DNA of 32,752 nt, taken from positions 1-32,752 of the forward strand of contig JAFGOA010000117.1 in the NCBI GenBank assembly GCA_016926735.1, written 5' to 3'. Source of the stretch: Promethearchaeota archaeon (lineage in GTDB: Archaea; Asgardarchaeota; Lokiarchaeia; Sigyniarchaeales; SOKP01). A program made the position numbers and the translations under genes. Position 1 is the first letter of the stretch, and the number at the start of each line of letters is the position of its first letter. Of this stretch, positions 8,920 through 26,098 are shown in pieces. The notes under the pieces are model-generated. The model saw nothing but the letters and a program-made list of their open reading frames with translations. It was not told the DNA's origin and made no database searches.

Positions 8920-9379
8920 ATGAAAATATCAAAACCAATAGTAAAACAAATAGGATTTTTTTTATAAAACCTCGAGAAAAGTCGTGAATCATTGTATTTC
9001 TCATAATATTGGGGTGATTATCATCGGATATAATGAGAGATGGAAACAAGAGATACATATTGGGAAGAAAAATAATCAAAACTTCGTCTTCGTTCCCTTT
9101 CTAAAGCTTGTCCAACAAATCGAATATAAGGCAGAGATGATTGGGATTAAAGTCATTCGAACAAGTGAAGAGTATACCTCCCAGAAGTTTTCTTGTCGTG
9201 GTGTTGTTTGTAAGTCAAATCGGAAATATCGAGGCTTATATGTATGTAAGAATTGTGGAATGGTCTTAAATGCTGATGTGAATGCGTCAATAAATATTTT
9301 ACAAAAAAAAGTTCCTAAATCAAAATGGATAGGGGATAGAGGGTGTCTGAGCCGACCATTAGTGTTAGAAATTAGTTGA
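8920..9379 (+). pseudogene. tnpB: Decayed IS200/IS605 TnpB (OrfB) C-terminal remnant
   Basis: The open part (GTG at 8984 to 9379, 131 residues) is the C-terminal third of a TnpB nuclease: G-V-I-I-I-G-Y-N-E-R-W-K-Q-E, F-V-x-x-P-F, a Y-K-A-E-M-I-G-I-K-V block, an E-Y-T-S motif, a zinc-finger region with V-C-K-N-C-G, and the final N-A-D-V-N-A-S motif with its RuvC aspartate. Homology continues upstream without a start: 8954-8983 encodes D-F-F-Y-K-T-S-R-K in the same frame after a TAG, and 8920-8953 encodes a matching helix in a shifted frame. The run of eight T at 8956-8963 is the likely frameshift site. The first RuvC aspartate and the whole N-terminal two thirds (about 250 residues) are missing, so nuclease activity is not expected. 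Confidence 0.85.
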
Positions 9380-9722: not shown

Positions 9723-10391
9723 TTATTGTTTTTCTTTTTTAAGGAACTCTGGTTTAATTTTTGTAACCCTTGCTATTATTTTTGCTTTTAATTCAATTAT
9801 TATACTGCTTTTTTGTTCAGATGGTATATTAATTTTATATTTATAGTTTGGTTCTTCTATTTCTGAAGGTACAGGTTCAGATGATACAAAAACAATATCC
9901 TTTGTTTGTTTAAAATCAAGAATTAATTGAATATCATCATTCAATTTATTTTCAATTGTGATTTTTCTTGATATATTATCATATCGAGTTCTGACTTCAA
10001 TATGCTCTTTTGGATCTCTTGCATCTTCATAAGTAACTTTCTCTATACCTTCATTTATGTTTACTACATCATCATCAACCTTGATATCATCATCTATTAA
10101 ATCTTCTGAGATAATCTTATTACCAATAGTTCCTGCAGTATTTAAAAAAAGGAATGGAAGATTATCTTTATATAGTGTCATAGGTGAATTAATGGGAATT
10201 TCTTTAATATCTCCTTGCTTTACTAAAATATATCTTATAATTACATCCCAATTGATTTTATTATAGGATACATTAGTTGCAGTATATTGAATTTTTATTT
10301 CTCGTTCAATATTGAGATCACATTTGGATTTAAACCAATTTAATTTGATCTTCTTACGGGTTGGTATATTTGCTTTCATTTTTTTTTTCAT
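9723..10391 (-). CDS. DUF4139 C-terminal-domain-like protein
   Basis: The 222-residue soluble, beta-rich protein resembles the C-terminal half of DUF4139 (MuiA-like) proteins. It has the pattern P-M-T-L-Y-K-D-N-L-P-F-L-F (near residues 68-80), which matches the conserved presentation of a residue stretch before the final beta sandwich. Then come an R-T-R-Y-D-N-I strand and the I-T-I-E-N-K-L motif followed by several alternating strands up to the end. Its start is one base after the stop of the preceding gene (TGA-G-ATG), so it is translationally coupled. The two upstream genes encode the matching N-terminal halves. I infer that a protein normally made as one chain is here made as separate chains that probably associate. 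No signal peptide. Molecular function of the family is unknown. Confidence 0.6.
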   Translation of the reverse strand: MKKKMKANIPTRKKIKLNWFKSKCDLNIEREIKIQYTATNVSYNKINWDVIIRYILVKQGDIKEIPINSPMTLYKDNLPFLFLNTAGTIGNKIISEDLIDDDIKVDDDVVNINEGIEKVTYEDARDPKEHIEVRTRYDNISRKITIENKLNDDIQLILDFKQTKDIVFVSSEPVPSEIEEPNYKYKINIPSEQKSSIIIELKAKIIARVTKIKPEFLKKEKQ

Positions 10392-10392
10392 C

Positions 10393-11112
10393 TCATAACA
10401 TTAAATTTTTTAATCTTTGAGTTTTTTTTCTTGATTGTTGGAGATCTTGTCCAATAGCTGATGATTGAAAATATGCTTGTTGTTCCTGTTCTTGCATCAA
10501 ATTCAAAGATGCGTCTTCAGGTATTTTGTATATCGCAAATCCTAAATCAACATGGTTATAAGAGAACCCTGTTTGATTATCAATCACAAGAAACCCTTCA
10601 ATCTCAGCAGTTTTTCCACTTTTGTTGATATTAACATGGAGGGTAGTATTCCATTTTATCCTAATATCATTAATAAAATATGTTATTTCTACAAGTATTT
10701 CACTTTCTCTGGAAGAATTTACTATGAATTCAAAAATTCCATTCATATCTGCGTATGTTTTATAAGAACTTGCTTCACAGATATTAGATATATTATCTCT
10801 CATCTCTCGAGTAAAATCTATGGAATGTGATATTATATTTTGGGCAGCTGATTTTTCTCGTTCTATAAGTTGATTTGCATTTTTTATATCTGGTAAAGAA
10901 GTTATAGTTTGTTGGAGTGTTATATGTGTCTTATCTTCTGGTTTAAGATATTTAAGTTTAACTTCCGCAGAATTGGGATCAAAACTTGCCGGGATATTTT
11001 GAATTTCAAAATTATTACTCCCTGTTTGTAATGTTAGTTTAATCTCACGTTTTACAATTCCTCCACCCTCATTAAAAATGATTATACTTTTTACTCTAGG
11101 ATCTATTAGCAT
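10393..11112 (-). CDS. DUF4140/DUF4139 N-terminal-like protein, paralogue B
   Basis: The 239-residue protein starts with a DUF4140-like beta domain: V-K-S-I-I-I-F-N-E-G-G-G-I-V-K-R-E (residues 7-23) and N-I-P-A-S-F-D-P-N-S-A-E-V (38-50). A conserved helical connector follows (E-R-E-K-S-A-A-Q-N). The chain then enters the start of a DUF4139 domain, with I-R-I-K-W-N-T-T-L and the D-N-Q-T-G-F-S-Y-N-H-V-D-L segment that corresponds to the Q-N-T-G-E-D-W motif of the family. It stops soon after, where full-length family members continue for roughly 200 residues. It is clearly similar along its whole length to the next gene upstream, so the two are a tandem duplication. The separate 222-residue gene downstream looks like the missing C-terminal half. 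Confidence 0.65.
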   Translation of the reverse strand: MLIDPRVKSIIIFNEGGGIVKREIKLTLQTGSNNFEIQNIPASFDPNSAEVKLKYLKPEDKTHITLQQTITSLPDIKNANQLIEREKSAAQNIISHSIDFTREMRDNISNICEASSYKTYADMNGIFEFIVNSSRESEILVEITYFINDIRIKWNTTLHVNINKSGKTAEIEGFLVIDNQTGFSYNHVDLGFAIYKIPEDASLNLMQEQEQQAYFQSSAIGQDLQQSRKKTQRLKNLML

Positions 11113-11126
11113 AATTTACACGATTT

Positions 11127-11861
11127 TTATTTGATTTGTTTATATCGTTGTGTTCTTTTTAATTTATTTTGGACTTCATAAAAATTATTATTGATGTTAG
11201 CTTGACCATAAGCTTGTTCGGGGAGATTAACATTTGATAAACCTCCCACAACAGAATATGATGTTGGTTCTGGAAGTTCAAATATAGCAAAACCTAAATC
11301 CACATTTTCATAAGAAAATCCTGTTTGATTATCTACAATTATAAATCCTTCGATTTCAGGAGTATTATTGTTAGATATCTTAACAATTAGGCTTGTTGAC
11401 CATTTTATCCGAATATCATTTATAAAATAAAGTATATTTACTATTATATCTCCAGAGATTTTACTGTTTATAATAAAATCAAATGTTCCTATCATGTCAG
11501 CATAAGTACGATAAGAACTTGATTCACAGATCTCAGATATTTTTTCACGCATTTCTCGTGTAAAATCTATAGAATATGATATAATATTATTCGCCGCAGA
11601 TTTTTCACGAGTAATTTCTTGATTTGCATTGTTTTTATCAGGAAGAGTTGTAATGGTTTGCTGAAGTTTGATCAGTTCTTTATCCTCTGGTCTTAAATAT
11701 TCCAACTTAATCTCTGCTGAGTTGGGATCAAAACTTGCAGGGACATTTTGAATTTGAAATTCATTTATTCCTTGGTGTAGAGAAAGTTTAATTTCTCGTT
11801 GAACAATTGCTCCTCCATTGTTAAAAATATCTAATCTTGTAACTTTTGGATCAATTAACAT
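11127..11861 (-). CDS. DUF4140/DUF4139 N-terminal-like protein, paralogue A
   Basis: The 244-residue protein is the first gene of the three-gene unit and is strongly similar to the neighbour 14 nt downstream. The two share M-L-I-D-P at the start, P-A-S-F-D-P-N-S-A-E near 40, L-Q-Q-T-I-T, the R-E-K-S-A-A connector, C-E-(A/S)-S-S-Y-(K/R)-T-Y-A-D-M, and D-N-Q-T-G-F-S-Y. The tails after about residue 205 diverge; here the tail is glycine/asparagine-rich with a basic end. A BRE/TATA-like GCGAAATATAAG lies 20-30 nt before the ATG with no Shine-Dalgarno sequence, so the operon mRNA is probably leaderless. The duplication followed by tail divergence suggests heteromeric assembly of the two copies with the C-terminal subunit. 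Confidence 0.65.
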   Translation of the reverse strand: MLIDPKVTRLDIFNNGGAIVQREIKLSLHQGINEFQIQNVPASFDPNSAEIKLEYLRPEDKELIKLQQTITTLPDKNNANQEITREKSAANNIISYSIDFTREMREKISEICESSSYRTYADMIGTFDFIINSKISGDIIVNILYFINDIRIKWSTSLIVKISNNNTPEIEGFIIVDNQTGFSYENVDLGFAIFELPEPTSYSVVGGLSNVNLPEQAYGQANINNNFYEVQNKLKRTQRYKQIK

Positions 11862-11974: not shown

Positions 11975-12430
11975 TTAATCAGAACAATTTTTCATGAGTT
12001 GAATAAATTCTTTAAAATTAATTCTATTGTCGTTATCTCTATCAACTTCCTTTAGTATTGCATTAACTTGAGGATCCTTTAAGTTTTCTCCTACTTCATA
12101 CATAATACTTTTCAATTCATCCAGAGTTACATATTTATTTCCATCAAGATCGCAAATTTTAAACGCTTCAATAAGTTTTTCTTCTTGGAGTTTGAAAAAT
12201 ACATGATTCTTATATAAATTCAGAAATTCATGAAAAGTGATAAATCCATCTTCATTTAAATCCATCTTATGCATCAGTCCCATAATTTCATTATCTGAGA
12301 AATCATGACCTAAAGCAGAATAGATATCTTTTAATTCATTTAAAGTTATACTTCCACTTCCATCATTATCAAATGTCGAAAAAATATCTCTTATCCTGTG
12401 AATTTCAGTATCATTAATATCAAACAACAT
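11975..12430 (-). CDS. Calmodulin-like four-EF-hand Ca2+-binding protein
   Basis: The 151-residue protein is predicted to bind calcium through four EF-hands. The loops run D21-E32 (DNDGSGSITLNE), D57-E68 (DLNEDGFITFHE), D94-E105 (DLDGNKYVTLDE) and D130-E141 (DRDNDNRINFKE). Each has acidic or Asn ligands at loop positions 1, 3 and 5, a hydrophobic residue at 8, and Glu at 12. Loops 3 and 4 lack the usual Gly at position 6 (Lys and Asn instead), which may weaken binding. Spacing between loop starts is 36, 37 and 36 residues, the same as eukaryotic calmodulin (D20, D56, D93, D129) shifted by one. Length (151 versus 149) and helix pattern also match. No signal peptide or membrane segment is present, so it is cytosolic. 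It has its own TATA box and an AGGTGAG ribosome-binding site. It follows the NikR gene and precedes the DUF4139 operon on the same strand. Confidence 0.92.
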   Translation of the reverse strand: MLFDINDTEIHRIRDIFSTFDNDGSGSITLNELKDIYSALGHDFSDNEIMGLMHKMDLNEDGFITFHEFLNLYKNHVFFKLQEEKLIEAFKICDLDGNKYVTLDELKSIMYEVGENLKDPQVNAILKEVDRDNDNRINFKEFIQLMKNCSD

Positions 12431-12467
12431 TTTTTATAATCTCACCTAAATATCTAAAAATTTGTTC

Positions 12468-12478
12468 TTTTTTATATT
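12468..12478 (-). promoter_or_regulatory. TATA box of the calmodulin-like gene
   Basis: On the minus strand AATATAAAAAA lies 38-48 nt before the ATG at 12430. Transcription is expected to begin near 12446, just at the AGGTGAG ribosome-binding site (12441-12447), giving a leader of about 16 nt. This shows the EF-hand gene has archaeal expression signals of its own. Confidence 0.5.
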
Positions 12479-12508
12479 CTTTGAATTTATTCAATAAATA
12501 AACGAATC

Positions 12509-12910
12509 TCAGGTTAATGGAAGTATTGTATATTTCAGTTGATTAATTCCTCTAATTCCTCTTATTCTAGCCAATAGATTAGTTATTTCAATATTTTTAC
12601 CCTCTGCTAAAAATAATTCAATACAATATTTTTCTTCAACATGGCGATGAAGTACTTCTATAATCAAATTATTATAATCATGTCTTAATTTAGAGAGTTT
12701 ATTTTCTACGTCATTTCTGTCAAATTCATTAACAACAATAATTGATGCAAAAACTCGATCTTGATCTTTTACATTTATATCATAATCAACTATAATACTT
12801 CGAACAGCATCCCTTATTGCTTCAGATCGACTAAAATATCCTCTTTTTTTTACTAGTTTTTCTAAACTTTCAGTAAGTTTCTTTGTAAGCGAAACACTAA
12901 TAATAGGCAT
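12509..12910 (-). CDS. nikR: NikR-type nickel-responsive regulator
   Basis: The 133-residue protein has the same length as E. coli NikR. Residues 1-45 form a ribbon-helix-helix DNA-binding domain (I-S-V-S-L-T-K-K-L strand, then helices with S-R-S-E-A-I-R-D-A-V-R). The C-terminal ACT-like domain has the four high-affinity nickel ligands H77, H88, H90 and C96, exactly the spacing of E. coli H76, H87, H89 and C95. It should be a tetrameric, metal-dependent repressor. The ATG is preceded by a GGTGAT ribosome-binding site. It is transcribed divergently from a heavy-metal P-type ATPase, and the shared region holds a dyad with NikR-like spacing, so regulation of itself and of the ATPase is likely. 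NikR more often controls nickel uptake, so an efflux target is less usual. Confidence 0.9.
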   Translation of the reverse strand: MPIISVSLTKKLTESLEKLVKKRGYFSRSEAIRDAVRSIIVDYDINVKDQDRVFASIIVVNEFDRNDVENKLSKLRHDYNNLIIEVLHRHVEEKYCIELFLAEGKNIEITNLLARIRGIRGINQLKYTILPLT

Positions 12911-12945
12911 TATATCACCAAAATTACCTATTTTTTATAAAATAG

Positions 12946-12985
12946 TTATTAACTAATTGATTATATGTTAATAATAAATTATTAA
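12946..12985. promoter_or_regulatory. Candidate NikR operator between nikR and the P-type ATPase
   Basis: TTATTAAC (12946-12953) and GTTAATAA (12967-12974) are perfect inverted repeats separated by 13 bases. The right arm also forms a second dyad, TTAATAAT-AA-ATTATTAA (12968-12985). The arm spacing (centres 21 bp apart) is close to known NikR sites, such as GTATGA-N16-TCATAC in E. coli and GTGTTAC-N13/14-GTAACAC in Geobacter. The site sits just upstream of the nikR TATA-like TTTTATAAAAAATAGG and about 30-40 bp upstream of the ATPase TATA region. Low sequence complexity weakens the case. Confidence 0.5.
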
Positions 12986-13051
12986 TCTTTGTATTTTTTT
13001 TAACATTAATTTAATAAAGAAGTATGTGTATTATCAAAATGAGGTATATCT

Positions 13052-15049
13052 ATGAGTAATTTATGTAAATCATGTGAAGAATCTATCATAAAAGATGATA
13101 AAAATGATATAAGAGAAAGAAATCAAAAATTAGTGATTATCATCGTCTCTAGCCTTTTATTAGCTATTTCACTTATCTATGAATTTGTTATAGGGAATTT
13201 CTTATACAATCAAATTTTTGCGGCTATTGTTACAATTATTAGTGGAGCAGAAGTAATGTATTATGGATTAAAGAAATTACTCCAAAAACAGATTACTATT
13301 AATTTTTTGATGACTATTGCTACAATTGGAGCTTTTTTAATAGGTCATGGAGGAGAAGGAGCCGTACTTATGCTCCTTTATTATATTGCTGAATTTTTAG
13401 AGGATTATGCAAAAGATAAATCAAAAAAATCGATAAGTTCTCTCATGAAAATTACTCCTGAAACCACATTTGTAAAAAAAAACAATGAATTTACTGAACT
13501 CCATACACATGATGTCTCTATAGGTGATATAATTCAAATAAAACCAGGGGAAATAATCTCTTTAGATGGAATTATTATTTATGGCTCGTCAAATATAAAT
13601 GAGGCTTCCTTGACAGGAGAATCTATTCCGGTCTTTAAAAAAATTGGTAATGAAGTCCTAGCAGGAACAATAAATTGTGATGGATATCTTGAAATTAAAA
13701 TAACGGCAACATATGATAAAAGTTTTATTTCAAAAATAAAAGAATTAATTGAGAATGCTAAAAATCAAAAATCATCAACAGAACTATTTGTTGATCAATT
13801 CGCTAAATATTATACTCCAATTATGGTCATACTTACTTTTTTTATTATGTTTATTATGCCATTACTCATTCAACAATCTTATAATTTATGGATATACAGA
13901 GGATTAACATTACTGGTTATCTCTTGTCCATGTGCTATTGCATTAGCAACACCAATTTCGACAATTACAGCGATCATAAGTGCTGCAAAGCATGGGATCC
14001 TAATAAAAGGTGGAAAGTATATTGAAGAAATGGCAAAAATAAACTCAATAGCATTTGATAAAACAGGTACACTTACTCATGGAATAATTGAAGTTAAAGA
14101 TATTCTATCTTACGATGGTACAATTGAAAATTGGTTTGGTATTGTATATGGATTAGAATTATTATCTGAACATCCTATTTCTAAAGCAATTATTACAGAG
14201 GCAAAAAAAAGACATATTAATCCATCGAAAATAGAAAATTTCAAAGCAATTATTGGTAAAGGTGTATCTGGTAATTATAATCAAAAAGAATTTTTATTAG
14301 GTAATAAACAATTATTCAAAAATATTAATCATCCAAATATAAAAAATAAAGAACTATTGGACACATATAATGAAAAATCTATACTTTTTTTTGGTGATAA
14401 AGAAAAAATTCTTGGTTCTATCATCCTTCAAGATAAAATGCGAGAGGAATCAAAAGAAGTTATTGAAATATTAAAAAGACAAAAAATAAAAACAATTCTA
14501 ATATCCGGAGATAATAAAAATACTGTAATCTATGCTCAAAAAAGATTAGATGTAAATGAATTTCATTATGAACTTAAACCTCATGAAAAACAACATATTA
14601 TACAACAAAAAAAGGATAATAGAAATAAGATAGCAATGATTGGTGATGGAATAAACGATGCTCCTTCACTTGCTCTTGCTAATGTTGGAATTGCTATGGG
14701 GGGTATTGGAAGTGACGTATCAATGGAGACTGCGGATGTTATATTGGTTAAAGATAATCTGAAAGATATTTTATCATTTCTCGAAGTTAGTAAGAAAACA
14801 GCTTCTATTATCAAATTTAATATCATTTTTTCTATATTGATTAAAATATTATTCGTATTTCTTACATTTCTCGGATTTATGACGCTTTATATTGCTGTCG
14901 GGATTGGTGATTTAGGGCTAACTCTATTTGTTATATTAAATGCTTTTAGAATTTCAAAGATTAAATTTTACAGCAAAAATCCAAAAAAAAACAAGTCAAT
15001 AATAAACAAAATAGAGACGAAGTATTGTAGCAGTATTTGTAATTGCTGA
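13052..15049 (+). CDS. P1B-type heavy-metal-exporting ATPase (Zn/Cd-like)
   Basis: The 665-residue membrane ATPase would pump a soft or transition metal ion out of the cytosol. Core motifs are T188-G-E-S, the metal-binding C292-P-C294 in a transmembrane helix, the phosphorylated D336-K-T-G-T-L-T, the S-E-H-P-I nucleotide motif, and G531-D-G-I-N-D-A-P. The last helices have K followed by G-D-L-G-L-T-L-F-V-I-L-N-A-F-R, the pattern of the P1B-2 (Zn/Cd/Pb) subgroup. No N-terminal HMA domain is present; instead there is a short C5-x2-C8 N-terminus and a C-terminal tail with three cysteines near the end (Y-C-S-S-I-C-N-C). A GAGGT ribosome-binding site precedes the ATG. Divergence from nikR suggests nickel-responsive control, so nickel itself is a possible substrate. 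Confidence 0.93.
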   Translation: MSNLCKSCEESIIKDDKNDIRERNQKLVIIIVSSLLLAISLIYEFVIGNFLYNQIFAAIVTIISGAEVMYYGLKKLLQKQITINFLMTIATIGAFLIGHGGEGAVLMLLYYIAEFLEDYAKDKSKKSISSLMKITPETTFVKKNNEFTELHTHDVSIGDIIQIKPGEIISLDGIIIYGSSNINEASLTGESIPVFKKIGNEVLAGTINCDGYLEIKITATYDKSFISKIKELIENAKNQKSSTELFVDQFAKYYTPIMVILTFFIMFIMPLLIQQSYNLWIYRGLTLLVISCPCAIALATPISTITAIISAAKHGILIKGGKYIEEMAKINSIAFDKTGTLTHGIIEVKDILSYDGTIENWFGIVYGLELLSEHPISKAIITEAKKRHINPSKIENFKAIIGKGVSGNYNQKEFLLGNKQLFKNINHPNIKNKELLDTYNEKSILFFGDKEKILGSIILQDKMREESKEVIEILKRQKIKTILISGDNKNTVIYAQKRLDVNEFHYELKPHEKQHIIQQKKDNRNKIAMIGDGINDAPSLALANVGIAMGGIGSDVSMETADVILVKDNLKDILSFLEVSKKTASIIKFNIIFSILIKILFVFLTFLGFMTLYIAVGIGDLGLTLFVILNAFRISKIKFYSKNPKKNKSIINKIETKYCSSICNC

Positions 15050-21752: not shown

Positions 21753-21847
21753 GAAAAAAATTTCAAACTTATTCCAACCAGTTTTTTATTATAATTTAGC
21801 TTTTTTTTAAAAGATCTAAAAACAACTTGAGGAATGTGATTTTTAAA

Positions 21848-24800
21848 ATGATAAAAATAAATAGATTTCATTCACAAAAGAAAAATTTTTTCAACTACCT
21901 TTTATTTTTTACTTGTATTATTATTTCAAATTGTCAGTCTATAACTTTTATTACAACTAATGTAAATCCAAATAATCCAAATCTAAAAACATCTCAAACA
22001 ATACCAGTCTTAAATTATACAATGAATTCTAACTATGATTATAATTGGATTGATGCTTCTGATGGTACTAAATTATTATTAGGAGAATATGAATATTCAG
22101 CAATTCAATTACCCTTTGAATTCTATTTTTATAATCAGTCATTCTCTGTTCTTTATCTTTCGAGTAATGGATTTTTAAGATTTGTAGAATCTAATATGGA
22201 TCATGGAAACAGTTATTATGGTTTTTCATCTGCTTACTATCCTTATACTATTGCACCTTTTTGGACATATTTAGAGAGATTAAATGATAGAGAAATATTT
22301 GTTCAGAATCATACTGAATATTGGGTTGCAGAATGGAAAAATATGTATTACTATAATAATGCATCTATAGGTTCATTTGAAGTCATTCTATATAGAACGG
22401 GAGAAATAATTTTTAATTTTGAAGAAATTAAATATAATTGTTCCTATTCATGTGGATTAAATCAAGGGAGTAATTTAGATCTTTTTAATATTTATAAAGG
22501 TATTAATGACGCTACGGCTAATTTCGCAATTCAATTTAAACAGACTAAACCTGAACATGAAATAGCGGTAACTTTAGATCTACCAAACAATCCTAAAATT
22601 GATTCAACCTATTTAGTTAATGCCTCCATATGGAATTTAGGGGAATTTAATGAATCTAATATTGAATTTAACATATATCTTGATGATATAATTGTTGAAT
22701 CTACATTTTTAACATCCTTATTATCCAACGATATTATCTTCCTTTCTTATATATGGAATCCTGTATTGACAGGAACATATAATTTCACTGTGACATCTTC
22801 TCTCATAGTAAATGAATCAGTTCTTACAAATAATCAAATAATTAAGCTAATTCCTGTTGTTGCTTTAAAAAATTATACAATGATAACTAATTATGCTTTT
22901 AATTGGATTGATGCGTCCATAGGACATGAATTATATATGAGTGATGATGGATATTCAACTTTAGGATTACCATTCACATTTACATTCTATAATTGTACGT
23001 TTAAAACAGTTTATTTTAGTGCCAATGGATATCTGAGTTTTGGGGATTCCACACCAACAAATTGGGGAAATATAGCATTTCCTAATAATAGATATAAAGA
23101 CTATTTCTATATGATCGCACCTTTTTGGGATGATTTAAATCCACGAGCAGGAGGAAAAGTATATACTCTTACAACAAAAGATTATTGTGTTATAGAATGG
23201 GAAAATATATGTTATGCAGGAGGAACTTATGTAGGGAGTTTTCAAGTTATTTTATTTAATTCCGGAGACATAATCTTTAATTATGATCATATAAGATCAA
23301 CTATCGGAAATCCAACGTGCGGATTGAATATGGGAGCTAATATTTCATATTATACAGTTTTTGACAAACTCAATGATTCTATAAATGAATTTTCACTACT
23401 TTTTACTCAAGCTGAGATAAAACATGATATTGTTGTTGCTTTAGATACTCCTTATTTAGCAAATATCAATCATAATTACTTAATTAATGCTAGTGTATAT
23501 AACATAGGGTATTTTGATGAAATTAATATCGATTTAAATCTCTATATCGATGGAATTTTAGTAAATTCGACCTATATTCCCGTATTAAAAAATTGTAGCT
23601 ATAAAACTATTACATTTGATTGGTATCCAACAGATATCAAACAATTCAATTTCAGTCTAATTTCAAATATTATTACTAATGAATATGAAAAAAATAATAA
23701 TTATATACAAAAAAATATCACAACATCCAATATTATAAATTATCATCTGGTTCCTAATCATCCTTATTATTGGATTGATGCTTCTCAAGGAGAATGTTTT
23801 AAAAACCATCGTTATGGAGCATATGAAACTGCTTATTTGCCATTTGATTTTTATTTTTATAATCAGACTTTTTCCAAAGTCTACATAAGCTCCTTTGGAT
23901 ATCTTAGTTTCACAGATGAATATCCAAACAGTTGGAATAATAGACCATTCCCTCTAACGTCAAATGATTATTCATATATGATTGCTCCGATGTGGATGGA
24001 TCTAGATTTATCTCGTGGAGGAGAAATATATATGAGGAATTTTAGCGATTGTTGGGTTGTCGAATGGAATGAGATTAGAATATATGATTATTTTGAAATT
24101 ATTGGAGGAACATTTCAAGTAATATTATTCAAATCTGGAGATATCGTTTTTAATTATCAACGAGTAAATACATTGAGAAATGGATATTCATGTGGAATAA
24201 ACTTTGGATATGATCATAGAATATTTAATGCTTATACAAAATTAACAACATCATCTGAATATTCTCTTTATTTTACACAAAATTCAAATAATCCTCCAGA
24301 TAAACCAAATCTACATCCAATTAATCCACAAATGGACCAAGATGGAATAATTTCATTAGTTTGGGATGAGGTAGATGCAGCATTATTTTATAATATTTAT
24401 AGATACACTGATCAAATTACTTATTTGAATCCTCGATGGTTGATACAAAGTATGAATCAAGGAACTTCATTTACAGATATAGTGTATATAAGTCAAGTTT
24501 ATTATTACGTTGTTGTTGCTGTTAATGGAACTGGAGTTTCTAATCTATCAGAATGTAGATCCGTTAGTGTCGAATTAGTTGTACCTCCTATCCCTTTCCT
24601 TGAAAATATCAGTATTTGTTCTTATGATCAAAGCTATATTATTTTAAACTGGTCTAATATTCTCAGTGCAACATCATATAATATATATCGTGATAATGTT
24701 CCAATTACTACTCCAAAACCATCTCAATTAATTAAAACAAATTCATATAATTCTACATTAGATTGGTTACCCTCAATTGGTAGGTTTTATTATGTTGTAA

Positions 24801-26098
24801 CTGCTATTAATGAAGCAGGGGAATCTGAATCCTCTAATTGTGTAATGATCACTTTAGATTCAATTCCACCTAAAAAGTGGACTATTCTAATATATATCGC
24901 AGCGGATAATGATCTTGAACGGTATGGAATTCAAGATATTAATGAGATGGAATCAATTGGTTCGGATGACAATATAAGTATTTTAGTTCAAATAGATAGG
25001 AGATTAGGATATGATTATTCAAATGCAAATTGGACAGATACAAGACGAGGTATTATTTTATATGATGATAACAATGCAGTTATCGAATCTACATTATTAT
25101 CATTAGGAGAATTAAATATGGGTAGTAGTCAAACTCTAGAGGAATTTATTAATTGGGGGAAAGAAAGATGTCCTGCTGAAAATTATATGTTAATTCTATG
25201 GAATCATGGTACTGGTGTAATGAATGGAATGGAACAAGGTTATATCTGTGAGGATATTAATGATAATGATTCCTTGACTAATCAAGAGATTGAATCTGCT
25301 ATTAAGGATAAAGAATTAGATATTTTAGGATTTGATGCTTGTTTAATGGCTTCAATTGAGTATTATTATGCTCTAAAAAACCATACAGATATTTTTATTG
25401 GGGCAGAAGGATTTGAACCTGGTGAAGGGTGGCCTTATGATACAATTTTAAATTGGCTTAGATTAAACTCAAATGCAAATTCAACTGAATTCAGTAAGGT
25501 TTTAGTTGATAAATATATCAGTTCAATGTATACATTAGATAGATATAGTACTTTAAGCGCTGTAAAATCTTCTTGTATAGATAATTTAATTACATCATTT
25601 TCTAATTATATATCTGCATTATTAGAGAATATTGAAATATATAAAGACAGAATTTCTATAATTAGGGATAATATTAATACATATGATTATAAACCCTATG
25701 TTGATTTTTATGATTTAATCTTTTGCTTGAATCGAGATATTCCAGAACTAAATAAAACAGCAGAATTTTTGTTAAATAACATATCTGAATGTGTCATTAA
25801 CTCAAGGTATCGTGGTAATTCTTATTCAAATAGTAAGGGATTATCGATATACTTTCCCCAATCTCGTACGGAATTTTCAAGCAATTATTGTAAGCTTCCA
25901 TGGGGTCTCGATGTAAATTGGGATAATTTTCTCATGAAATATTATGGAATTTATGATCCCAATCAAGGTAATCCAGACAATCCAGACAACCCTAATAATT
26001 CGATTTCAGGATATAATATAATGATCTTAATATGTGTTATTGGATTCTCCTTCATATTATTTTTGACTAAAAAGAAAAAATTCAATATAAAAAAATAA
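21848..26098 (+). CDS. Large surface protein: three repeats, FN3 domains, C11 clostripain-type protease, C-terminal anchor
   Basis: The chain is 1416 residues from the chosen ATG; a TTG at 21827 would add seven. An N-terminal signal peptide is followed by three repeats of about 287 residues, each starting at a W-I-D-A-S motif (W67, W353, W642). Each has a nidogen-like part with an A-P-(F/M)-W-x-D/Y-L motif and a C-G-(L/I)-N segment; the first two end in a CARDB-like Ig domain. Two FN3-like domains follow (about 815-1005). Then comes a C11 (clostripain/gingipain-like) peptidase with W-N-H1120-G-T-G and G-F-D-A-C1165 as the catalytic His and Cys. A Pro/Asn-rich linker leads to I-S-G-Y-N plus a transmembrane helix and a basic tail, an archaeal C-terminal sorting-like anchor. 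It is predicted to digest or bind proteins at the cell surface. Confidence 0.9.
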   Translation: MIKINRFHSQKKNFFNYLLFFTCIIISNCQSITFITTNVNPNNPNLKTSQTIPVLNYTMNSNYDYNWIDASDGTKLLLGEYEYSAIQLPFEFYFYNQSFSVLYLSSNGFLRFVESNMDHGNSYYGFSSAYYPYTIAPFWTYLERLNDREIFVQNHTEYWVAEWKNMYYYNNASIGSFEVILYRTGEIIFNFEEIKYNCSYSCGLNQGSNLDLFNIYKGINDATANFAIQFKQTKPEHEIAVTLDLPNNPKIDSTYLVNASIWNLGEFNESNIEFNIYLDDIIVESTFLTSLLSNDIIFLSYIWNPVLTGTYNFTVTSSLIVNESVLTNNQIIKLIPVVALKNYTMITNYAFNWIDASIGHELYMSDDGYSTLGLPFTFTFYNCTFKTVYFSANGYLSFGDSTPTNWGNIAFPNNRYKDYFYMIAPFWDDLNPRAGGKVYTLTTKDYCVIEWENICYAGGTYVGSFQVILFNSGDIIFNYDHIRSTIGNPTCGLNMGANISYYTVFDKLNDSINEFSLLFTQAEIKHDIVVALDTPYLANINHNYLINASVYNIGYFDEINIDLNLYIDGILVNSTYIPVLKNCSYKTITFDWYPTDIKQFNFSLISNIITNEYEKNNNYIQKNITTSNIINYHLVPNHPYYWIDASQGECFKNHRYGAYETAYLPFDFYFYNQTFSKVYISSFGYLSFTDEYPNSWNNRPFPLTSNDYSYMIAPMWMDLDLSRGGEIYMRNFSDCWVVEWNEIRIYDYFEIIGGTFQVILFKSGDIVFNYQRVNTLRNGYSCGINFGYDHRIFNAYTKLTTSSEYSLYFTQNSNNPPDKPNLHPINPQMDQDGIISLVWDEVDAALFYNIYRYTDQITYLNPRWLIQSMNQGTSFTDIVYISQVYYYVVVAVNGTGVSNLSECRSVSVELVVPPIPFLENISICSYDQSYIILNWSNILSATSYNIYRDNVPITTPKPSQLIKTNSYNSTLDWLPSIGRFYYVVTAINEAGESESSNCVMITLDSIPPKKWTILIYIAADNDLERYGIQDINEMESIGSDDNISILVQIDRRLGYDYSNANWTDTRRGIILYDDNNAVIESTLLSLGELNMGSSQTLEEFINWGKERCPAENYMLILWNHGTGVMNGMEQGYICEDINDNDSLTNQEIESAIKDKELDILGFDACLMASIEYYYALKNHTDIFIGAEGFEPGEGWPYDTILNWLRLNSNANSTEFSKVLVDKYISSMYTLDRYSTLSAVKSSCIDNLITSFSNYISALLENIEIYKDRISIIRDNINTYDYKPYVDFYDLIFCLNRDIPELNKTAEFLLNNISECVINSRYRGNSYSNSKGLSIYFPQSRTEFSSNYCKLPWGLDVNWDNFLMKYYGIYDPNQGNPDNPDNPNNSISGYNIMILICVIGFSFILFLTKKKKFNIKK

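What the first reader, a model, noticed from the sequence alone, without database searches (positions are those of the whole stretch)
11975..12430. Archaeal protein with exactly the architecture of eukaryotic calmodulin
The 151-residue protein carries four EF-hand loops with starts at 21, 57, 94 and 130. The intervals of 36, 37 and 36 are identical to calmodulin (20, 56, 93, 129), with matching inter-loop helices and total length. All four loops keep Glu at position 12; loops 3 and 4 have Lys/Asn instead of Gly at position 6. Prokaryotic EF-hand proteins usually have fewer hands or different spacing, so a colinear calmodulin in an apparent Asgard genome bears on the origin of eukaryotic calcium signalling. 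Its own archaeal TATA box and AGGTGAG ribosome-binding site argue against a eukaryotic contaminant. The spacing is seen; homology and function are inference.
Basis: partly seen in the sequence, partly recalled or inferred. Interest (0 to 1): 0.88.

Follow-up and report, generated by a model that had tools for sequence, protein, structure and literature searches.

The report
Calmodulin-like calcium protein in Lokiarchaea
A small group of Asgard (Lokiarchaeota) archaea carries a real, actively maintained gene for a protein laid out exactly like calmodulin, the calcium sensor of eukaryotic cells, but it is missing from nearly all other Asgard genomes, so it more likely entered this group by gene transfer than founded eukaryotic calcium signalling.

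Summary
The gene is real. It lies on the MINUS strand (ATG at 12430, stop 11975-11977) and encodes 151 aa with four canonical EF-hand loops at 21, 57, 94 and 130. It aligns without gaps to calmodulin over its whole length (34-36% identity; PDB phmmer E about 1e-28; best structural hit Paramecium calmodulin). It is not contamination: orthologues sit in five other Lokiarchaeal genomes among archaeal genes (nikR/DUF4140-like, proS, and inside trpB-trpA), under purifying selection. The evolutionary reading is only partly supported. Six of 228 Asgard genomes have it, all in one sub-clade of one family. One member without it keeps a 3' scar at the syntenic site, so the gene was lost there. Trees place the archaeal clade outside the sampled calmodulins, but weakly. 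Best account: a genuine stand-alone calmodulin-type Ca2+ protein that entered the ancestor of this clade, most simply from a eukaryote, then was inherited with relocations and losses. Ca2+ binding and targets are inferred, not shown. It is calmodulin-like, not calmodulin sensu stricto: loops 3 and 4 lack the position-6 Gly, and most N-lobe pocket Met are replaced. I found no report of an archaeal calmodulin in the papers searched.

The parts
11975..12430 (-). CDS of the 151-aa calmodulin-like protein, stop codon included
12335..12370 (-). EF-hand loop 1 (aa 21-32, DNDGSGSITLNE), canonical ligands
12227..12262 (-). EF-hand loop 2 (aa 57-68, DLNEDGFITFHE), canonical ligands
12152..12235 (-). aa 66-93: exiting helix of EF2, linker and entering helix of EF3, predicted as one continuous helix, as in crystal calmodulin
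   Evidence: AlphaFold2 model
12116..12151 (-). EF-hand loop 3 (aa 94-105, DLDGNKYVTLDE), Lys at position 6
12008..12043 (-). EF-hand loop 4 (aa 130-141, DRDNDNRINFKE), Asn at position 6
12441..12447 (-). AGGTGAG ribosome-binding site, 10 nt before the ATG
   Evidence: sequence; partly conserved in the sister species
12468..12479 (-). TATA-like GAATATAAAAAA, identical in the sister species; possible core promoter (inferred)
12509..12910 (-). NikR/CopG-type metal-responsive regulator, 78 bp upstream on the same strand; same arrangement in the sister species only
9723..11861 (-). three downstream genes (two DUF4140-like paralogues and a third ORF); a conserved Lokiarchaeal cluster that occurs elsewhere without the calmodulin-like gene, so context rather than partner

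Best explanation
The gene encodes a soluble, stand-alone, four-EF-hand protein homologous over its full length to the calmodulin/troponin C/centrin/CDPK superfamily. It entered the common ancestor of one sub-clade of a Lokiarchaeal family (genera g1, g3, g4 and g6), most simply by horizontal transfer from a eukaryote, and was then inherited vertically with relocation into at least three chromosomal sites and repeated loss. Inferred mechanism: both lobes bind Ca2+ in canonical loops, binding opens the hydrophobic pockets, and the protein then grips amphipathic helices of cytosolic targets, or at least buffers Ca2+. Shown: homology, colinearity, intact Ca2+ ligands and hydrophobic pockets, archaeal location, purifying selection, one loss scar. 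Inferred: Ca2+ binding, Ca2+-driven opening, targets, and the direction of transfer.
For: Gapless alignment to calmodulin and top-60 PDB hits all calmodulin or calmodulin fusions; archaeal profile scores Paramecium/human calmodulin 135/134 bits, centrin 103-105, CDPK 91-102, troponin C 94, calcineurin B 71, plasmid EF-hand 36. All six members keep positions 1, 3, 5 and 12 of all four loops; 209 of 216 pocket cells hydrophobic. AlphaFold2 pLDDT 78.5, seven helices, long central helix; Foldseek best hit calmodulin 1osa, E 1.4e-11. C-lobe closest to calmodulin C-lobe in all six; N-lobe closest to calmodulin N-lobe in five. Six genomes, all on one side of the ProRS tree (100/99); trpB-gene-trpA in G007 where trpB-trpA are neighbours elsewhere; 3' remnant after proS in G015; dN/dS 0.15-0.39 for divergent pairs.
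Against: No Ca2+-binding or target data. No conserved partner gene: three genera, three neighbourhoods. Position-6 Gly lost in loop 4 of all six and in loop 3 of five, which may lower C-lobe affinity. The calmodulin Met residues of the N-lobe pocket are mostly replaced by Tyr or Leu, and the linker is more hydrophobic than in calmodulin. The archaeal clade does not fall inside the sampled calmodulins. Eukaryotes were thinly sampled and bacterial chromosomes could not be searched at depth, so the donor is not identified.
Confidence: 0.6

Rival explanations
1. Ancestral Asgard calmodulin: the gene is the archaeal sister of the eukaryotic calmodulin family, kept in one Lokiarchaeal sub-clade and lost in all other Asgard lineages.
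For: All archaeal sequences form one clade outside the sampled calmodulins, troponin C and centrins; one documented loss with a scar shows the gene is easily lost.
Against: Absent from all genomes outside one family and from 222 of 228 Asgard genomes, which would need very many losses; the within-family pattern (present only in g1, g3, g6) again marks one entry point.
Confidence: 0.12
2. The gene came from a bacterium with a calmodulin-like four-EF-hand protein.
For: A published analysis derives eukaryotic calmodulin itself from cyanobacteria or actinobacteria (PMC7016017), and bacterial EF-hand proteins are diverse.
Against: The best match among 72,556 plasmid records is 24.5% identical, E 2e-4, with a different architecture; even human calmodulin finds only partial or differently spaced plasmid proteins. 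No match in phages. Bacterial chromosomes were scanned only for close relatives.
Confidence: 0.2
3. Convergence: an archaeal two-EF-hand protein duplicated independently and reached calmodulin spacing.
For: A separate lobe tree does not formally reject grouping the archaeal N and C lobes (p-AU 0.18); in G007 the N-lobe is slightly closer to its own C-lobe than to calmodulin's N-lobe.
Against: C-lobes match calmodulin C-lobes clearly better than their own N-lobes in all six; the best lobe tree puts archaeal N lobes with eukaryotic N lobes and archaeal C with C (81/85; only the CDPK N lobes stray); no clear two-EF-hand archaeal precursor was found in Asgards.
Confidence: 0.06
4. Eukaryotic contamination or a binning error.
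For: Host is a 238-contig metagenome assembly with 4.8% estimated contamination.
Against: Orthologues in five other assemblies, flanked by archaeal genes and in one case inside an archaeal trp operon; intronless; gene 26.5% G+C against 27.0% for the window.
Confidence: 0.01

Closest known systems
Calmodulin (eukaryotes)
   Same: Length, four canonical loops at 36/37/36 spacing, gapless alignment, long central helix in the model, acidity (net -15 to -19 against -24), hydrophobic pockets, C-lobe Met109 and Met145 equivalents
   Different: Only 34-40% identical; position-6 Gly missing in loop 4 (all) and loop 3 (five of six); N-lobe pocket Met mostly Tyr or Leu; invariant Cys93 in place of Phe92; hydrophobic linker; encoded among archaeal genes
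Centrin, troponin C, CDPK calmodulin-like domain
   Same: Same superfamily and lobe order
   Different: Lower scores than calmodulin; centrin and troponin C have N-terminal extensions, troponin C a longer linker, CDPK is fused to a kinase and has shorter C-lobe spacing
Bacterial EF-hand proteins (sarcoplasmic/calerythrin type, small two-EF-hand proteins, repeat EF-hand proteins)
   Same: EF-hand Ca2+ motifs in a prokaryote
   Different: Two hands or other spacing in the plasmid examples seen; about 25% identity to the archaeal protein, with gaps
G157 four-EF-hand protein (same order, other family; L050)
   Same: Four canonical loops; calmodulin is the best PDB hit (E about 1e-13 for plain calmodulins)
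   Different: Loops at 22, 58, 105, 141, so the linker is about 10 residues longer; much weaker similarity, not an orthologue by score

Membership tests
Calmodulin superfamily (calmodulin/troponin C/centrin/CDPK type four-EF-hand proteins) | Four EF-hands in two lobes, full-length colinear alignment | tested here: met
Calmodulin superfamily (calmodulin/troponin C/centrin/CDPK type four-EF-hand proteins) | N- and C-lobes correspond to the N- and C-lobes of the superfamily (shared ancient duplication) | tested here: inconclusive
   Scores favour it, most clearly for C-lobes; the best lobe tree separates N and C at 81/85 (CDPK N lobes excepted), but the alternative is not rejected (p-AU 0.18)
Calmodulin sensu stricto | Loop spacing 36/37/36 and about 148-residue length without extensions | tested here: met
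Calmodulin sensu stricto | Canonical Ca2+ ligands in all four loops, including Gly at position 6 | tested here: not met
   Ligands at 1, 3, 5, 12 kept; Gly6 lost in loops 3 and 4 of the window protein
Calmodulin sensu stricto | Methionine-rich target-binding pockets | tested here: not met
   Hydrophobic character kept (209/216 cells), but Met36, 71, 72, 76 and 144 equivalents are Tyr, Phe, Leu, Val or Ile
Calmodulin sensu stricto | Falls inside the calmodulin clade | tested here: inconclusive
   Best trees place it outside; p-AU 0.07 and 0.10 for joining calmodulins
Calmodulin sensu stricto | Binds Ca2+ and Ca2+-dependent target helices | not testable with these tools
   needs purified protein

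The most novel reading that the evidence does not exclude
The Lokiarchaeal proteins are the archaeal sister lineage of the whole eukaryotic calmodulin superfamily, so that a complete two-lobed Ca2+ sensor existed in the archaeal ancestor (or stem line) of eukaryotes and works as a Ca2+ switch in living archaea.
Probability: 0.1. Interest if true: 0.95.

Novelty: new variant of a known kind. Interest (0 to 1): 0.62.

Why it matters
Calmodulin is often treated as a eukaryotic hallmark, and its origin has been ascribed to bacteria (PMC7016017). A maintained, full-length calmodulin-type protein in a defined Asgard clade gives a natural test of what such a protein does in a cell without the eukaryotic target set, and adds a likely case of traffic of a signalling protein between eukaryotes and Asgard archaea. 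It also warns that presence in one Asgard genome is not evidence of ancestry: here the gene is confined to one sub-clade.

Tried and rejected
Conserved partner gene: rejected; nikR/DUF4140-like, proS and trpB/trpA are the neighbours in different genera, and the DUF4140-like cluster occurs without the gene. Transmission by viruses, phages or plasmids: no close relative in phages or plasmids or by profile in viral contigs; human calmodulin as query found one viral contig with a 70% identical calmodulin, which is closer to eukaryotic calmodulin than to the archaeal proteins. Other Asgard EF-hand proteins (G099, G102 sarcoplasmic type, G157) are not orthologues by score. First lobe tree used loop starts off by one for the CDPK rows and for the 8osi calmodulin, and was replaced. 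Ca2+/cation antiporters are present in the host but also in 11 of 14 control genomes, so they are not informative. Paper searches for an archaeal or Asgard calmodulin returned no report; only openly licensed papers are held.

Full report
OBSERVATION. The coordinates hold, but the gene is on the minus strand: ATG at 12430, stop at 11975-11977, 151 residues (the plus strand there is full of stops). Loops start at residues 21, 57, 94 and 130, against 20, 56, 93 and 129 in human calmodulin; the intervals are identical. All loops end in Glu at position 12. Position 6 is Gly, Gly, Lys, Asn. Pfam EF-hand_7 matches twice (E 4e-33). A PDB search gives calmodulin or calmodulin fusions for all of the best 60 hits, about 1e-28, without gaps. 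Gene G+C is 26.5% in a 27.0% window.

WHERE IT OCCURS. The window is one contig (C160) of a 3.88-Mb, 238-contig genome, estimated 99% complete. A scan of GTDB species genomes brought up one close relative, titled Candidatus Lokiarchaeota archaeon (76% identity). Among 65 genomes of the window's family, six have the gene: two of genus g1, three of g6 and one of g3. A profile of those six searched against 228 genomes of the phylum finds only the same six, plus one weak partial hit to a different protein in another family of the order. An EF-hand family search shows a few other EF-hand proteins in Asgards: a four-EF-hand protein with a longer linker (G157) and sarcoplasmic-type proteins in G099 and G102. 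None is an orthologue by score.

NOT CONTAMINATION. In g1 the gene follows nikR and precedes two DUF4140-like genes and a third ORF. In g6 it follows proS by about 40 bp. In G007 (g3) it lies between trpB and trpA, genes that are direct neighbours in the g1, g6, g7 and g9 genomes checked. These are archaeal contexts in independent assemblies. Divergent pairs have dN/dS of 0.15-0.39, that is purifying selection; the three close g6 pairs give 0.19-0.5 on few changes.

HISTORY. A prolyl-tRNA synthetase tree of 27 genomes divides the family; g1, g3, g4 and g6 form one side with support 100/99, and g7/g8, where no genome has the gene, form the other. One entry into the ancestor of the first side is therefore the simplest account. 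G015 (g6) lacks the gene, but shortly after its proS stop it has FFKEFIQLMKKQ-stop, matching the end of the calmodulin-like protein (NFKEFIQLMKIQ-stop in G009). None of 100 shuffles of that region reached the score (observed 47, best shuffle 41). I read this as a deletion scar: absence in G015 is loss. Change of site between genera shows that the gene has moved.

RELATION TO CALMODULIN. The archaeal profile scores calmodulin highest (Paramecium 135, human 134 bits), then yeast-type calmodulins (107-112), centrin (103-105), CDPK (91-102), troponin C (94), calcineurin B (71) and a plasmid EF-hand protein (36). In the trees the six form one clade (97/90 and 100/98) outside the calmodulin, troponin C and centrin rows; joining them to calmodulin alone is not rejected (p-AU 0.07 and 0.10), nor is joining CDPK (0.32) or centrin (0.07). 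With 150 columns, few eukaryotic sequences and long branches, the placement is unresolved. Comparing lobes, archaeal C-lobes match calmodulin C-lobes clearly best in all six, and N-lobes match calmodulin N-lobes best in five; the lobe tree groups archaeal N with eukaryotic N and C with C at 81/85 (CDPK N lobes stray), while independent duplication is not formally rejected (p-AU 0.18).

STRUCTURE AND LIKELY ACTION. AlphaFold2 on the six-sequence alignment gives mean pLDDT 78.5, pTM 0.59, the EF-hand pattern and a continuous helix 66-93. Foldseek's best PDB hits are calmodulins (1osa, E 1.4e-11); full-length TM-scores are only about 0.5, as expected when lobe orientation differs. All six proteins keep the ligand positions of all four loops. 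Of 216 cells at calmodulin's pocket positions, 209 are hydrophobic; Met109 and Met145 equivalents are invariant, but Met36, 71 and 72 equivalents are Tyr, Phe or Leu. Phe92 is an invariant Cys93, and the linker is more hydrophobic than in calmodulin. The parsimonious mechanism is a cytosolic Ca2+-binding protein whose two lobes open on Ca2+ and hold target helices. Loss of Gly6 in loops 3 and 4 (general knowledge of EF-hands) suggests weaker or altered C-lobe binding; simple buffering is the fallback. No partner gene is conserved, so targets are unknown. The upstream region shares a TATA-like GAATATAAAAAA and a GTGAG-type ribosome-binding site between the two g1 species, so expression from its own promoter is plausible there; in g3 and g6 the short gaps suggest co-transcription.

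ORIGIN. A published study assigns eukaryotic calmodulin to a cyanobacterial or actinobacterial source; the passages read do not mention an Asgard calmodulin (PMC7016017). Two recent Asgard papers do not contain the words calmodulin or EF-hand (PMC12993045, PMC12872458). Since 222 of 228 Asgard genomes lack the family, late entry is favoured over descent from an Asgard ancestor. A eukaryotic donor is favoured over a bacterial one because nothing in plasmids comes close, but bacterial chromosomes could not be searched at depth, so the donor is an inference.

VERDICT. Real, maintained, and a new variant of a known kind: a calmodulin-like protein native to a Lokiarchaeal sub-clade. That it works like calmodulin rests so far on homology alone. 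The claim that it bears on the origin of eukaryotic Ca2+ signalling is possible but not the best reading.

Noticed in passing
L087:3733-3771 (genome G015): Twelve-codon 3' remnant of the calmodulin-like gene, with its stop, directly after proS in a genome that otherwise lacks the gene; a loss scar.
   Followed up: yes
L013:5485-8053 (genome G007): Calmodulin-like gene lies between trpB and trpA, splitting an otherwise contiguous tryptophan gene pair.
   Followed up: yes
L050:2-529 (genome G157): A second, distinct four-EF-hand protein in another family of the same order, loops at 22, 58, 105, 141 (longer linker), on a 3.5-kb contig.
   Followed up: partly
L051, L052, L053 (genome G099) and L054 (genome G102): EF-hand proteins resembling the sarcoplasmic/calerythrin type in another Asgard family, three copies in G099.
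   Followed up: partly
L100:3001-3447 (IMGVR_UViG_2872861354_000001): A contig classed as viral (39 kb) encodes a calmodulin 70% identical to human; possibly a virus of a eukaryote or a misfiled eukaryotic contig.
   Followed up: no
window 12509-15049: NikR-type regulator divergent from a P-type ATPase with E1-E2 and hydrolase domains, conserved in the sister species; possibly a metal-responsive efflux pair.
   Followed up: no
window 21827-26098: 1423-aa ORF with three similar repeated units, and a C-terminal part that looks like a clostripain-type peptidase (by eye only).
   Followed up: no
window 8984-9379: ORF resembling the C-terminal part of a TnpB/OrfB transposase-associated protein (by eye), about 2.6 kb from the calmodulin-like gene.
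   Followed up: no
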